Shown here one piece after another: positions 41,242-44,672 of a DNA stretch of 64,000 bases. Under the pieces are notes generated by a model, which was given only the letters and a program-made list of their open reading frames with translations, was not told the DNA's origin and ran no database searches. The stretch's first letter is position 1; the number at the start of each line of letters is the position of its first letter. Source of the DNA: Streptomyces celluloflavus. Lineage in GTDB: Bacteria > Actinomycetota > Actinomycetes > Streptomycetales > Streptomycetaceae. The stretch spans positions 124,001-188,000 of the forward strand of contig JOEL01000017.1 of assembly GCA_000720995.1 (NCBI GenBank), read 5' to 3'. The position numbers and the translations under genes are program-made.

Positions 41242-42555
41242 TCAGCTCGCGCGCGCCAGTTCCAGCAGCTCCGGAACGCCCTCGGCCGAGGCATGCCCGG
41301 TGAAGGCGGGGACGAGGTCACGCACCAGGGCGACACAGCGAGGGGCGCCGATGCGGTTCGCCATGGTCAGTGCCTCGGATGCGGCCGCGGCGGCCTGGTC
41401 GATGTCGCCGGAGCGCAGAAAGGCGCCGGCTTCGTATGTGCGGAAGACCGCCCGCGTCTTCGTCCGGGCATGCGGCAGCAGGCCGGTGCCTTCCTGGATG
41501 AGCTGGTGCGCCTTCCGGGGATCGCCGAGATCCAGCTGGCAGCGACCGCTGTCGACCGCCAGGTCCGACGGAGACATCCAGGCGCACCACGCCGGAGACG
41601 GGTCGCCGGCGGCAGCGCCGAGTTCCCGCTCGGCGGCGGCGAGGGAGCGGTTGCAGACGGCTGATTCGCCGAGCGCCGCGTGGGCCCGCGCCTTGCGCAG
41701 ATGCAGCAGCGACCGCGCCGTGGGGTGCGTGACGCGGGTGAGGGCGTGCTCCAGGATCTCCACCGCCGTCCGCGGGTCGCGGAGCCAGGTGGCCTGGTAG
41801 GCGAGATCCGACAGCACTCCGGCGCCGAGGTCGCGGTCACCGCTGGCGTGGGCGCTGTGCAGGGCCCCGTGCCAGAAGCGCGCGGCGGAGGCGTGCCGGC
41901 CGTGGTCGAAGCGGTACCAGCCGACCGTCTGTGACAGGCTCGCGGCGAGGGCGTGCAGCCTCTTGCCCATCCCTGAGGTGTAGCGGCCGTCGGCGATCAG
42001 ATCGGTCACAGTGGTGAGGTGGGCGTCCAGGAGCCGGGCGGCGTGCTGGCGCTGCTCCGTGGCCAGGGCCGTGAGCCTGACGCTGTGGTCCTCCAGCATG
42101 TCCACGAGGTTCGCGTCCACGCGGCTGCCGCCCCGCGCGTCGGCCATGGCGGACGGTTCGGATACGGCCCACTGGAGGGCGATACCGGTGAGCGAGGCCC
42201 CGGTGTAGCCGAGGAAGGCTCGGCGGTCGATGGACAATTTGAGAGCCTCTCGCAGTGCGGGGACGGTGCTCCCGGGGCCGAGGGACAGCGTGCTGTCGTA
42301 TCCGGGAACCCAGTGCGGCCAGCCGAGGGCGCGCACGAGGGCGGGGTCGGTGTCGAAGACTTCGGCGAGGAGGTCCTGAGAGTCGTCGTCGGGGTTGGCG
42401 CGGCCGTTCTCCCACTTCGAGATGCGTTGTTTGACGGCTCCCGAGCGCAGCCCCCGACGCTCCGCCGTCTTCCGGATCTTCCGGGCCAGATCGGTCTGCG
42501 ACCATCCGCGCATGCTCCGGGCGTAGGCGAGGGGATGGCGGATTTGGTTCTCCAC
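41242..42555 (-). CDS. XRE regulator with C-terminal TPR-like domain
   Basis: 437 aa, GTG 42555. The helix-turn-helix spans about 8-75: LAYARSMRGWSQTDLARKIR, then KQRISKWENGRANPD. A middle region marked by RRAFLGYTGASLTGIALQWA leads into helical TPR-like repeats (LSDLAYQATWLRDPRTAVEI, LLHLRKARAHAALGESAVCN, and YEAGAFLRSGDIDQAAAAAS). This plan is common in Streptomyces regulators related to NsdA. It is divergent from the methyltransferase-CYTH pair with 151 bp between, and is the obvious candidate for its control. Confidence 0.87.
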   Translation of the reverse strand: MENQIRHPLAYARSMRGWSQTDLARKIRKTAERRGLRSGAVKQRISKWENGRANPDDDSQDLLAEVFDTDPALVRALGWPHWVPGYDSTLSLGPGSTVPALREALKLSIDRRAFLGYTGASLTGIALQWAVSEPSAMADARGGSRVDANLVDMLEDHSVRLTALATEQRQHAARLLDAHLTTVTDLIADGRYTSGMGKRLHALAASLSQTVGWYRFDHGRHASAARFWHGALHSAHASGDRDLGAGVLSDLAYQATWLRDPRTAVEILEHALTRVTHPTARSLLHLRKARAHAALGESAVCNRSLAAAERELGAAAGDPSPAWCAWMSPSDLAVDSGRCQLDLGDPRKAHQLIQEGTGLLPHARTKTRAVFRTYEAGAFLRSGDIDQAAAAASEALTMANRIGAPRCVALVRDLVPAFTGHASAEGVPELLELARAS

Positions 42556-42706
42556 GGGTGTATCCCATCATCGAGCCGGGTGGGAAGAGTACCGCCGCGA
42601 CGGCCGGGATTACCTCGGGGCTACAGCCAACTCCTGTGCGAATACGTGCGGTTGAGCTCTACTCGGTGAAGCTGGAGCGCAGGGGGCGCCGGCGGAGGAG
42701 AGGGCG

Positions 42707-44101
42707 ATGACCGGAACTGAGTTCGCCGGTGAGCACAAGGCCGCTGCCGGGTACCTCGATGCGGCAGCCAATGGGCACGGCGAAGAGAAAGCGTTGCTCG
42801 TCCATTGGGCATTGCAGCGGGTACGAGCTCAGTGCCCCCGAGTGGTGGAGATCGGTCCCGGCGGGGGATCGGCCGTCAGCTTTCTCGCCTCTCGGCTGGC
42901 CTCGGAACAGGAGCGCCAAAAGAACATCAGCCTCACCCTCATCGAAGCTCCGGGAGTGGCGTCCGCCTCACTGAAACAGGCGATGGCGGAGTTCAGCAAG
43001 GTGGGCAGTTGCGAATTCGTCAGCGGATTCGCTCAGGACATCGGGACCATCGTCAGCGAACCCGCCGATGTGATCAGTGCGTCCGCGCTGCTGCACGAGG
43101 TGTACTCGTACAGTGGCGGGTACGGTGGGCTGCAATCATTGATCAGGGCGCTCCCCGGAGTTCTGAAACCCGAGGGGCTTTTCGCCTACCGCGATGTCTA
43201 CGCGGTAGAGGGCTCTTCCCTCCACGAACGCGCCGTGCAGACCTACGACTCAAAACCGTGGATCCAGTTTCTTCGCATGTTCCTCCCGTCGTATCTCCGA
43301 GAGGGAACGCATCCGTATCACGGCGCGGCTGACGAGGTTCTGGTCCGGCAGGATTCACGGATCGTGCCGATGGAGAGTCTCGACGAGGAGACGTACGCAT
43401 TCGTCTCCGCTCCGGTGGGTATCTTCCGCGAAGTGCAGCGGCACTACCTCACCTTCCGGGACCATATATGGAGGTCGGGCGTGCTGGGATTCAGGCCCGT
43501 TCTCGACGGTCAGCTGTCCTCGGACTGGATCGACGCCAAGTCCGGGCACAAGCGCGTGCACTACAGCATCACGGAGGCGGACTGGCTGCCTGCGTCGCAG
43601 AAGAAGACGCTGCTCATGCTGAGCGAGCGATACGCGGACCACTACACGGTGGACGGTGACATCTTTGACGAATTCACCGATATAGCGCTGTCGATGTTCC
43701 TCGGTCTGGCGGCGGAGGGCGCATCGGAATGTGCCGATGTACGGGATCACTGGATGGTTCGGGAAGGGCGGGAAACGTACGCCTACCTGACGGCAGATGA
43801 ACTGCTCACTGCATTTGCCGTCAGCTCGGTCGAGGCGCCTCAGGGCGGGCGGAGCGTGCTGATGCCCATCCGGGTATCCGATGTTCTCCAGCGGGACAGG
43901 AGCTACTACAACCGGTACCTCAGGAAGAAGCTTCCGAATCGTCTCAAAGACGCCAAGCAACTGGTGCTGTTCTCGAACATATCCCTCACGGATTCATACT
44001 CTCTGGAGTCGGCGATGAATTCTCTCCAGCGGTGGTGCAGCAAGGCCGGCCTTGCCCGCGTGTACTCGGCATTGAACGGAGGAGGATGGTATGGCGAATG
44101 A
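42707..44101 (+). CDS. Class I SAM-dependent methyltransferase-like protein, unusual long C-terminus
   Basis: 464 aa, ATG with GGAGGAG 7 bases upstream. SAM motif I is VVEIGPGGGSAVSFLASRLA (about 46-65), followed by LTLIEAPGVASASLKQAM, then VISASALLHEVYSYSGGYGG and LPGVLKPEGLFAYRDVYAVE, as in Rossmann methyltransferases. Residues 200-464 match no family I recognise (WIQFLRMFLPSYLREGTHPY, YADHYTVDGDIFDEFTDIAL, RDRSYYNRYLRKKLPNRLKD). Base use is visibly lower in GC than the flanking genes, suggesting transfer. Its end overlaps the CYTH gene by 11 bases, so both products are probably made together. Confidence 0.75.
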   Translation: MTGTEFAGEHKAAAGYLDAAANGHGEEKALLVHWALQRVRAQCPRVVEIGPGGGSAVSFLASRLASEQERQKNISLTLIEAPGVASASLKQAMAEFSKVGSCEFVSGFAQDIGTIVSEPADVISASALLHEVYSYSGGYGGLQSLIRALPGVLKPEGLFAYRDVYAVEGSSLHERAVQTYDSKPWIQFLRMFLPSYLREGTHPYHGAADEVLVRQDSRIVPMESLDEETYAFVSAPVGIFREVQRHYLTFRDHIWRSGVLGFRPVLDGQLSSDWIDAKSGHKRVHYSITEADWLPASQKKTLLMLSERYADHYTVDGDIFDEFTDIALSMFLGLAAEGASECADVRDHWMVREGRETYAYLTADELLTAFAVSSVEAPQGGRSVLMPIRVSDVLQRDRSYYNRYLRKKLPNRLKDAKQLVLFSNISLTDSYSLESAMNSLQRWCSKAGLARVYSALNGGGWYGE

Positions 44102-44672
44102 CGTCACGGAGATCGAGCGGAAGCGGGTCTTGCCGGACGACGGCAGTGCGGCGAAGTCGCTGCTCACGTCGCTCGGATATGTGGGAGCGGGGCCGACGAC
44201 CGAGGTCGACGTCTACTATACCCGGCCCGATGTGGACTATCTGGCGACCGTGGAATGCCTGCGGGTCCGTCGTCGGTACGGCTTCGCGGAGATCACCTAC
44301 AAGCCCGCGTCCGACGCGCGGACGCACAGCGCTGCTGATGTGGTCGCCAAACGGGAGACGAACGTCGTGCTCAGCGGCCCGGGGCAGGCGTGCGATGCGG
44401 AGCGCCTGCTGGCGGCTATCGGTATGCGACGTCTGGTCAGGGTCGAAAAGGTACGTGCGCTGTTCCGCCATCCGGAGCTGCCGGGGGTCGCGGTCAGCAT
44501 TGACACGGTTCCCGGGGTGGGCACCTTCATCGAGACCGAGGTGAACCGGACGGATCCCGACGGCGCCGTCGCGCTCATCGAGCGGATCGAACGGCAGCTC
44601 GGGGTCGCGGACTGCCCGCCCGTCTCCCTCCCCTACCGGGATCTCGTGCGCCAGGCCATGGCCACGGGGTAG
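44091..44672 (+). CDS. CYTH-domain triphosphate-tunnel protein (class IV adenylate cyclase / ThTPase fold)
   Basis: 193 aa, ATG inside the end of the methyltransferase gene, with GGAGGA 5-10 bases upstream. CYTH signatures are complete: EIERKR at residues 7-12 (ExExK), a basic pair in CLRVRRRYG, Lys in AEITYKP, VVAKRETNV, RVEKVRALFR and the acidic end SIDTVPGVGTFIETEV (D...G.F.E.E). The fold binds triphosphates or polyphosphate with metal ions and acts as a cyclase, triphosphatase or a binding module. Coupling to a methyltransferase is unusual and no known pathway fits. Lower GC, as in its partner. Confidence 0.85.
   Translation: MANDVTEIERKRVLPDDGSAAKSLLTSLGYVGAGPTTEVDVYYTRPDVDYLATVECLRVRRRYGFAEITYKPASDARTHSAADVVAKRETNVVLSGPGQACDAERLLAAIGMRRLVRVEKVRALFRHPELPGVAVSIDTVPGVGTFIETEVNRTDPDGAVALIERIERQLGVADCPPVSLPYRDLVRQAMATG

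What the first reader, a model, noticed from the sequence alone, without database searches (positions are those of the whole stretch)
42707..44672. Methyltransferase-CYTH gene pair with divergent TPR-XRE regulator: candidate undescribed system
A 464-aa protein with a SAM-binding N-terminus and an unrecognised 265-residue C-terminus overlaps by 11 bases with a CYTH protein whose triphosphate-tunnel residues all look intact. The GC content is visibly lower than in its neighbours, so the pair looks acquired. CYTH enzymes act on triphosphates (ATP to cAMP, ThTP, polyphosphate). Joining one to a methyltransferase suggests a modified nucleotide or triphosphate product made or removed together, as a signal, defence molecule or metabolite. 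I know no described pathway with this pair.
Basis: partly seen in the sequence, partly recalled or inferred. Interest (0 to 1): 0.78.

Follow-up and report, generated by a model that had tools for sequence, protein, structure and literature searches.

The report
Mobile methyltransferase–triphosphatase gene pair with regulator
A pair of enzymes, one that looks able to add methyl groups and one that looks able to cut triphosphates, recurs as a two-gene unit in many soil actinobacteria and some of their viruses, often beside its own switch, and I found no description of what it makes or destroys.

Summary
A 464-aa class I methyltransferase (MT, 42707-44101) overlaps by 11 nt a 193-aa CYTH protein (44091-44672), beside a divergent NsdA-family XRE/TPR regulator (41242-42555). 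The MT gene is the lowest-GC stretch of its length in the window (1 of 1253 sampled). The pair is not private to this genome: of 65 loci tallied, 48 carry both genes whole, in nine named actinobacterial genera and three viral contigs. Apart from the pair, only the regulator recurs in a fixed place: NsdA-like, divergent, within 3 kb upstream in 29 of 62 loci.

Two corrections. The 'unrecognised C-terminus' is mostly a roughly 200-residue insert inside the MT fold, whose last strands return to complete the sheet. The CYTH protein keeps the triphosphatase residues in 55 of 60 copies, the rest being four truncations and one flagged copy, and lacks the marks of class IV adenylyl cyclase.

Copies sit on prophage-like contigs, near a conjugative relaxase and at a linear-plasmid end; 13 of 65 loci are decayed. 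Best reading: a regulated mobile cassette whose enzymes act on one triphosphorylated, probably nucleotide, metabolite. Substrate and purpose (antimetabolite, signal, defence) are unproven.

The parts
41242..42555 (-). NsdA-family XRE/TPR transcriptional regulator (437 aa), divergent from the pair
   Evidence: NF053720 333 bits vs cut-off 75; HTH_3 PF01381 30.1 vs 23; an NsdA-like regulator lies upstream and divergent within 3 kb in 29 of 62 loci
42605..42625 (+). Operator-like direct repeat, CGGGATTAC-CT-CGGGGCTACA here, in the divergent promoter region
   Evidence: Best copies differ from the pattern by 0 (L017) or 1 base (L016, L021, and L091, where a 65% identical NsdA homologue faces a different operon) and by 4 in the window; 5-base-off matches also occur elsewhere in L010, L037 and L052, so the window copy rests on its aligned position
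42651..42665 (+). Second conserved box, GTTGAGCTCTACTCG here
   Evidence: 0 mismatches to GTTGGGCTGTACTCG in L016, L017, L021; 2 in the window and in L091
42707..44101 (+). Class I SAM-dependent methyltransferase, 464 aa
43253..43882 (+). Insert of about 210 residues (183-392) within the methyltransferase fold, before the final strands; 67 of 210 positions conserved in at least 95% of 49 homologues
   Evidence: Secondary structure and alignment ranges; conservation
43883..44098 (+). C-terminal part (393-464) holding the last strands of the Rossmann sheet and two helices
   Evidence: Model strands 393-397 and 416-426 lie inside the ranges of the MT alignments, most of which end near 424-428
44091..44672 (+). 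CYTH / triphosphate tunnel metalloenzyme, 193 aa, SaTTM type by motif
   Evidence: PF01928 59.7 bits; profile hits PH1819 7.7e-16 and SaTTM 4.6e-15; key residues in 44 of 44 aligned rows and in 55 of 60 loci

Best explanation
A horizontally mobile two-enzyme metabolic cassette, often under its own divergent regulator. The MT transfers a methyl group from SAM to a small molecule held under a large conserved lid inserted in its fold. The CYTH protein is a metal-dependent triphosphatase that removes the gamma-phosphate from a triphosphate. Because the two genes overlap or nearly touch and are tied to each other in distribution, I infer that they act in turn on one triphosphorylated metabolite, most likely a nucleotide. 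The MT would methylate it and the triphosphatase would drive the product forward or make it safe. The NsdA-like regulator would hold the operon down through the direct repeat in the shared promoter region. Shown here: the pair, its distribution, the predicted MT fold with its insert, the triphosphatase motif set, the linked regulator and the repeat. Inferred: both activities, co-transcription, shared substrate, nucleotide nature, repression. Unknown: the product's purpose.
For: Pair: 48 of 65 tallied loci have both genes whole; candidate CYTH starts mostly lie within about 15 nt of the MT stop. Co-restriction: in 396 genomes across the phylum, strong CYTH hits (E below 1e-70) occur only in the two genomes with the MT or its remains (a third genome, G605, has only a weak 27% MT match, E 2.4e-4), and the MT insert is in the same two. 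In the window's genus four of 343 genomes have a CYTH hit below 1e-80 and all four have the MT or its remnant. MT and CYTH distances correlate, r = 0.76 over 41 loci, permuted maximum 0.28 of 2000. Triphosphatase: motif rules of PMC8233210 met in 44 of 44 rows and 55 of 60 loci. Lid: at least as conserved as the MT core (67 of 210 against 53 of 182 positions), with many conserved Arg, His, Asp and Trp. Regulator: 29 of 62 loci upstream divergent, 0 upstream same strand, 1 downstream. Precedent for a triphosphate tunnel protein in nucleoside metabolite synthesis: Orf2 of the nucleocidin cluster, needed for fluorination (PMC10946740, section 8 read).
Against: No activity or substrate has been tested. 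The conserved basic and aromatic residues fit a phosphorylated substrate but do not prove one. The correlation of distances is partly shared ancestry within genera. The fold matches are tied and span O-, N-, S- and C-methyltransferases, so the fold gives no substrate. Three loci carry a whole MT without its CYTH partner (L006 at a plasmid end, L036, L053) and two carry one with a CYTH that has lost its N-terminus including ExExK (L021, L022). A decayed CYTH without any MT nearby occurs in G153 (L118). No NsdA-like gene was found within 3 kb in 32 of 62 loci, though several have other regulators or run into contig ends.
Confidence: 0.45

Rival explanations
1. Anti-phage defence or superinfection-immunity module: carried as cargo by prophages and plasmids, it makes a methylated nucleotide that blocks phage replication, or alters the nucleotide pool on infection.
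For: In viral contig L079 the pair lies about 1.8 kb before a gene of unknown PHROG family, then terminase, portal and major head genes; in L036 an MT alone lies about 2.8 kb from terminase, with portal beyond. Copies on viral contigs, downstream of a TrwC relaxase in L037, and at a linear-plasmid end. Patchy: 3 of 392 genomes of the genus have the MT full length, own genome included. Decay: 13 of 65 loci have at least one gene broken.
Against: Neither gene matches a PADLOC model convincingly; the best MT match is mad2, E 0.0017 over the MT core. No match in 50,697 phage records. Defence-type hits among 86 upstream proteins are mostly single cases (first 25 of 32 families seen), and I had no matched background. 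Some breaks may be draft-genome errors.
Confidence: 0.22
2. Biosynthesis of a small diffusible signal: the MT and triphosphatase make a compound sensed by the divergent TPR regulator, as in hormone-receptor gene pairs of actinobacteria (analogy recalled).
For: The divergent position of the regulator is strongly favoured (29 upstream divergent, 0 upstream same strand). A homologous regulator with the same direct repeat faces a small-molecule-type operon with an epimerase/dehydratase, aminotransferase and ATP-grasp enzyme in L091.
Against: Regulators vary: NsdA-like, HTH-deformylase fusions, GntR. No ligand evidence. A divergent regulator need not sense the product.
Confidence: 0.2
3. RNA 5'-end chemistry: the CYTH protein acts as an RNA triphosphatase (as Cet1) and the MT methylates the resulting end or a cap.
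For: The triphosphate tunnel fold was first seen in the RNA triphosphatase Cet1 (PMC8233210, passage); an MT with a triphosphatase is the capping arrangement minus the guanylyltransferase (recalled).
Against: No further enzyme is conserved in the neighbourhood clusters that I looked at (the 45 largest shown); no targeted search for a guanylyltransferase was made. The closest solved relatives are archaeal CYTH proteins, not Cet1-type.
Confidence: 0.08
4. Toxin and antidote: the MT makes a poisonous product and the CYTH protein destroys it.
For: Mobile, paired, regulated and at times decayed.
Against: Broken MT with whole CYTH: 7 loci. Whole MT with CYTH broken or absent: 5 loci. The MT gene is 2.4 times longer, so this is about what unbiased decay would give. 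Whole MT without any orthologous CYTH exists (L006, L036, L053).
Confidence: 0.08
5. Class IV adenylyl cyclase signalling, with the MT as a helper (the cAMP branch of the first reader's idea).
For: NCBIfam cyaB model matches at E 1.5e-13, but 51 bits against a cut-off of 57.95.
Against: HF near the N-terminus in 0 of 44; first Arg of xRxR kept in 44 of 44; second Glu of ExE kept in 44 of 44. By the published rules each of these speaks against a class IV cyclase.
Confidence: 0.03

Closest known systems
SaTTM (Saci_0718), archaeal triphosphate tunnel metalloenzyme
   Same: Second-best profile match in the PDB, 4.6e-15 (PH1819 is first, 7.7e-16); same ExExK, small-xRxR, ExE and DxY motifs
   Different: The parts of the SaTTM paper that I saw mention no methyltransferase partner; this subfamily has its own invariant Cys56 and YRD triad 182-184
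SABATH methyltransferases (for example tea N9-methyltransferase CkTcS; the SABATH label is recalled)
   Different: The SABATH model (Methyltransf_7, name recalled) is not among the Pfam families matched by 49 members; the fold scores are tied with other MT families
Orf2 of the nucleocidin gene cluster
   Same: A protein of predicted triphosphate tunnel fold in an actinobacterial nucleoside pathway, essential for fluorination (PMC10946740, section 8). The cluster also has a predicted MT, NucL, in its sulfamylation set (passage)
   Different: Orf2's co-dependent neighbour is a histidine-phosphatase-type gene (orf3); nothing that I saw pairs Orf2 with an MT; sequences not compared here
NsdA regulators of Streptomyces
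   Same: Member of the NsdA family model, 333 bits
   Different: Not NsdA itself: 82.9 bits against the equivalog cut-off of 830

Membership tests
CYTH / triphosphate tunnel metalloenzymes | Pfam CYTH domain above cut-off and N-terminal ExExK | tested here: met
   59.7 bits vs 23.2; E7, E9, K11 in 44 of 44 rows
SaTTM-type triphosphatase | No HF motif; small residue then RxR; ExE on strand 8; basic tunnel residues; DxY | tested here: met
   HF in 0 of 44; C56, R58, R60, K71, K120, R122, E148, E150, D40, Y42 in 44 of 44 and 55 of 60 loci; rules from PMC8233210
SaTTM-type triphosphatase | Hydrolyses triphosphate with a divalent metal | not testable with these tools
   Needs purified protein
Class IV adenylyl cyclase (CyaB) | HFxxxxExExK, small residue instead of first Arg, Ala instead of second Glu | tested here: not met
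   All three fail in 44 of 44; cyaB equivalog 51 bits vs 57.95
Thiamine triphosphatase | W or Y in the W/YxRxR motif | tested here: not met
   Cys56 in 44 of 44
Class I SAM-dependent methyltransferase | Rossmann-type MT fold with glycine-rich SAM motif | tested here: met
Class I SAM-dependent methyltransferase | Curated Pfam cut-off for an MT family | tested here: not met
   Window protein: Methyltransf_28 19.3 vs 23.3, Methyltransf_12 17.1 vs 30, Methyltransf_11 13.1 vs 21.2; for the other 48 members only best E-values were printed
SABATH methyltransferases | Sequence match to the SABATH family model | tested here: not met
   Not among the 11 Pfam families matched at E up to 1 by 49 members
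SABATH methyltransferases | Fold with helical cap of the same topology | tested here: inconclusive
   Top row CkTcS but tied with others; the insert could not be folded or searched alone
NsdA family regulators | NF053720 model above cut-off | tested here: met
   333 vs 75 bits
Known anti-phage defence systems | Component matches a PADLOC model | tested here: not met
   CYTH no match; MT only mad2 at E 0.0017 over the MT core; regulator RmrA at E 0.0014 over the HTH

The most novel reading that the evidence does not exclude
The pair is a self-contained, mobile pathway for a new methylated nucleotide: the MT methylates a nucleoside triphosphate under its lid, and the dedicated tunnel enzyme trims it. 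The product serves either as an antimetabolite against phages and rivals or as a signal read by the divergent TPR regulator. That would be a kind of nucleotide system not described before, as far as my searches reach.
Probability: 0.2. Interest if true: 0.85.

Novelty: new variant of a known kind. Interest (0 to 1): 0.6.

Why it matters
The biological role of many CYTH enzymes is open. Here is a subfamily tied to one partner enzyme, often to one regulator type, and to mobile DNA, which narrows its substrate to something the partner may also handle. Two small proteins are enough to test it directly by mass spectrometry. If the product is a methylated nucleotide it would add a new antimetabolite, signal or defence molecule in antibiotic-producing bacteria. 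It also warns against the automatic label 'class IV adenylate cyclase' for such genes.

Tried and rejected
cAMP by class IV cyclase: rejected by three motifs. Thiamine triphosphatase: rejected by Cys56. A separate C-terminal domain: rejected by the model. An in-frame MT-CYTH fusion in L021 first looked like fusion evidence; on reading it the CYTH part lacks its first 28 residues including ExExK, so I treat it as a likely deletion, not as support. A second CYTH gene near the MT in L053 first looked like a replacement partner; a like XRE-CYTH pair stands without an MT in another genome (L119), so it may be chance neighbourhood. Toxin-antidote asymmetry: 7 against 5 loci, no support. Promoter and terminator scans: nothing beyond chance. 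MT profile against solved structures: no credible match. PHROGs: no match for either protein. A first genome scan with the single MT sequence found nothing; the four-sequence alignment did. Paper searches for the pair: listings seen, none described it by title or start of abstract. A search for a puromycin parallel gave none; searches on SABATH and NsdA gave listings that I did not follow. A decayed CYTH in G153 has no MT nearby (L118), and G345 has an MT fragment with no CYTH found (L012). Four of the 62 loci (Cryobacterium, L072, L074-L076) match the MT core only, at about 30%, and L073 is a fragment.

Rows dropped before counts: one search left out the duplicates L018 (= L011) and L071 (= L013), L073, and the fragments or weak hits L012, L013, L014, L072, L074-L076 and L080. 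One search used 62 loci, one search used 65 (L012, L013 and L014 added). The MT alignment A5 holds 49 rows: of the 53 one-piece MTs it leaves out L006, L010, L045 and L054 and uses L018 for L011. The CYTH alignment A4 holds 44 rows and leaves out 16 copies (L010, L013, L021, L022, L038, L045, L048, L050, L052, L054, L059-L061, L064, L067, L070; L011 is in it as L018); one search then checked all 60 loci with a CYTH match.

Full report
What is there. The window holds a 464-aa ORF at 42707-44101 and a 193-aa ORF at 44091-44672 that overlap by 11 nt, both on the + strand. A divergent 437-aa regulator lies at 41242-42555. The MT gene has 61.1% GC against 70.8% for the window and is the lowest of 1253 sampled stretches of its length; the CYTH gene has 68.0% and the regulator 71.9%. 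In 42 of 47 other loci the MT gene is also lower in GC than its flanks, by 4 points on average over the 47.

How widespread it is. The MT is single copy in its own genome. With the single MT sequence, 5 of 392 genomes of the genus matched, three of them full length including the window's own, and 3 of 396 across the phylum, one of these only weakly. That the genus is Streptomyces is inferred: G302's contig has the length of the S. monashensis contig of L018 and carries the same gene. A scan of 84,980 species genomes with a four-sequence MT alignment gave 62 loci, five of them weak or fragments; IMG/VR gave four, one a fragment, and a later scan one more contig. After removing duplicates and fragments, 53 loci carry the MT in one piece and 49 of these have CYTH within 400 bp on the same strand, mostly overlapping or a few bases away. 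In a tally of 65 loci, 48 have both genes whole, 3 have a whole MT and no CYTH match, 2 a whole MT with a truncated CYTH, 7 a broken MT with a whole CYTH, 2 both broken, 2 a broken MT and no CYTH, and 1 is cut by a contig end. The named genera with whole pairs are Streptomyces, Kitasatospora, Nocardia, Nocardiopsis, Actinoalloteichus, Streptoalloteichus, Actinoplanes, Actinophytocola and Actinopolyspora (titles). Some breaks may be sequencing errors in draft genomes.

Tied to each other. Across 396 genomes of the phylum, strong hits of the CYTH profile (E below 1e-70) occur only in the two genomes that hold the MT or its remains, and the MT insert is found in the same two. Within the genus, four genomes of 343 have a CYTH hit below 1e-80 and all four have the MT or its remnant; a fifth (G153) holds a decayed CYTH with no MT nearby. 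The other CYTH hits in the genus are weak (E 5.9e-11 to 1.4e-4); the one that I read belongs to another CYTH subfamily (L119). MT and CYTH distances correlate at r = 0.76 over 41 loci, against a maximum of 0.28 in 2000 permutations; shared ancestry within genera explains part of this. Gene clustering of the neighbourhoods found the regulators in 13 loci and a short-chain dehydrogenase group in 15; the latter is a common gene family, lies at scattered positions where I saw it, and is not adjacent to the pair as a rule. No other cluster reached more than 7 loci.

The regulator. It belongs to the NsdA family (NF053720, 333 bits) but is not NsdA itself. A profile built from a cluster of 14 related genes or gene pieces, gathered wherever they lay in the neighbourhoods, placed an NsdA-like gene within 3 kb upstream and divergent in 29 of 62 loci, upstream on the same strand in none and downstream in one. 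The seeds come from the same loci, which helps detection but not the orientation. In five further loci an upstream protein carries a peptide-deformylase domain; in three of them (L046, L060, L061) it is fused to an HTH domain. In the window and three relatives (L016, L017, L021) the divergent intergenic region keeps a tandem CGGGACTAC-type repeat and a second box. The window's repeat is 4 bases off the pattern, and 5-base-off matches occur elsewhere in L010, L037 and L052, so it rests on its aligned place. The same repeat, 1 base off, occurs in L091, where a 65% identical NsdA homologue faces an operon with epimerase/dehydratase, ATP-grasp, DegT aminotransferase and phosphatase genes. So the regulator with its repeat may be a movable unit set in front of small metabolic operons. 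Repression is inferred from the family name.

The CYTH protein. Its nearest solved relatives are the archaeal proteins PH1819 and SaTTM. The SaTTM paper (PMC8233210; abstract and passages seen, sections 7 and 10 read) gives three motifs that separate cyclases, thiamine triphosphatases and triphosphatases. All 44 homologues aligned here have the triphosphatase set and none has a cyclase or thiamine mark. Over all 60 loci with a CYTH match, 55 keep all 13 key residues without a stop; L013, L021, L022 and L061 are truncated and lack ExExK, and L038 keeps the residues but has a stop in the aligned stretch. So the expected reaction is release of the gamma-phosphate, not cAMP.

Where it travels. In viral contig L079 the pair lies about 1.8 kb before a gene of unknown PHROG family, followed by terminase, portal and major head genes, with a DNA methylase gene in between. 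In L036 an MT without CYTH lies about 2.8 kb from a terminase gene, with portal beyond. Another viral contig carries a DnaB-like helicase (L077). A TrwC relaxase is encoded upstream in L037, and an MT sits at the end of a linear plasmid of Streptomyces albidoflavus. No cultured phage record matched either protein. Scattered presence, mobile carriers and decay suit an accessory function that pays only at times: defence, competition or signalling. I identified no mobile-element gene beside the window's own copy, but I did not search its neighbours for such genes beyond six proteins.

Mechanism. Overlap, co-restriction and the two chemistries point to two steps on one molecule. A triphosphatase of this type acts on a triphosphate; the most common triphosphates in cells are nucleotides (general knowledge). 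A protein of predicted triphosphate tunnel fold is essential for one step in making a nucleoside antibiotic, nucleocidin (PMC10946740, passages and section 8 read). I therefore favour methylation and dephosphorylation of a nucleotide, with the purpose open. The rivals are listed with what would refute each.

Novelty. Six paper searches for the pair or for CYTH with methyltransferases in these bacteria listed no paper that describes it by title or start of abstract; I did not open the listed papers. A seventh search listed 30 of 53 papers on triphosphate tunnel enzymes, of which I opened two. No PADLOC or PHROGs model describes either protein convincingly, and no Pfam or NCBIfam model describes the MT or the pair. 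The library holds open-licence papers only. Each part belongs to a known superfamily; the fixed combination with its regulator does not match any system that I know.

Noticed in passing
L046:6344-7816, L061:6348-7850, L060:5188-6618 (deformylase pieces in L052:4809-5513 and L057:6357-6776): Divergent upstream proteins in which an HTH domain is fused to a peptide-deformylase domain, in Actinophytocola and Nocardiopsis; Pseudonocardia and another Nocardiopsis have deformylase pieces there.
   Followed up: partly
L091:528-8233 (G035): A homologous NsdA regulator with the same direct repeat faces an operon with epimerase/dehydratase, ATP-grasp, DegT aminotransferase, phosphatase and HAD genes; a glycosyltransferase gene lies nearby on the other strand.
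   Followed up: partly
L053:10861-12201 and L119:3838-5259: A separate XRE-CYTH gene pair in Streptomyces, with a different CYTH subfamily (EAELK motif), standing without any methyltransferase match in L119.
   Followed up: partly
L032, L066, L071 just upstream of the MT: In some Nocardia loci a predicted 27-aa hydrophobic peptide and a conserved 100-aa protein without a Pfam match precede the MT.
   Followed up: no
L032:14635-16324; Nocardia jinanensis L026, L028, L073: Second, degraded copies or several copies of the pair in one genome, as expected of repeated acquisition and loss.
   Followed up: partly
window:46291-48143: Response regulator and sensor kinase next to the locus are 78-89% identical to a pair in two relatives whose neighbouring genes on the side of the MT differ.
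   Followed up: partly
window:7619-8217: Two small overlapping genes that look like a RelE-type toxin and its antitoxin (judged by eye, not tested).
   Followed up: no
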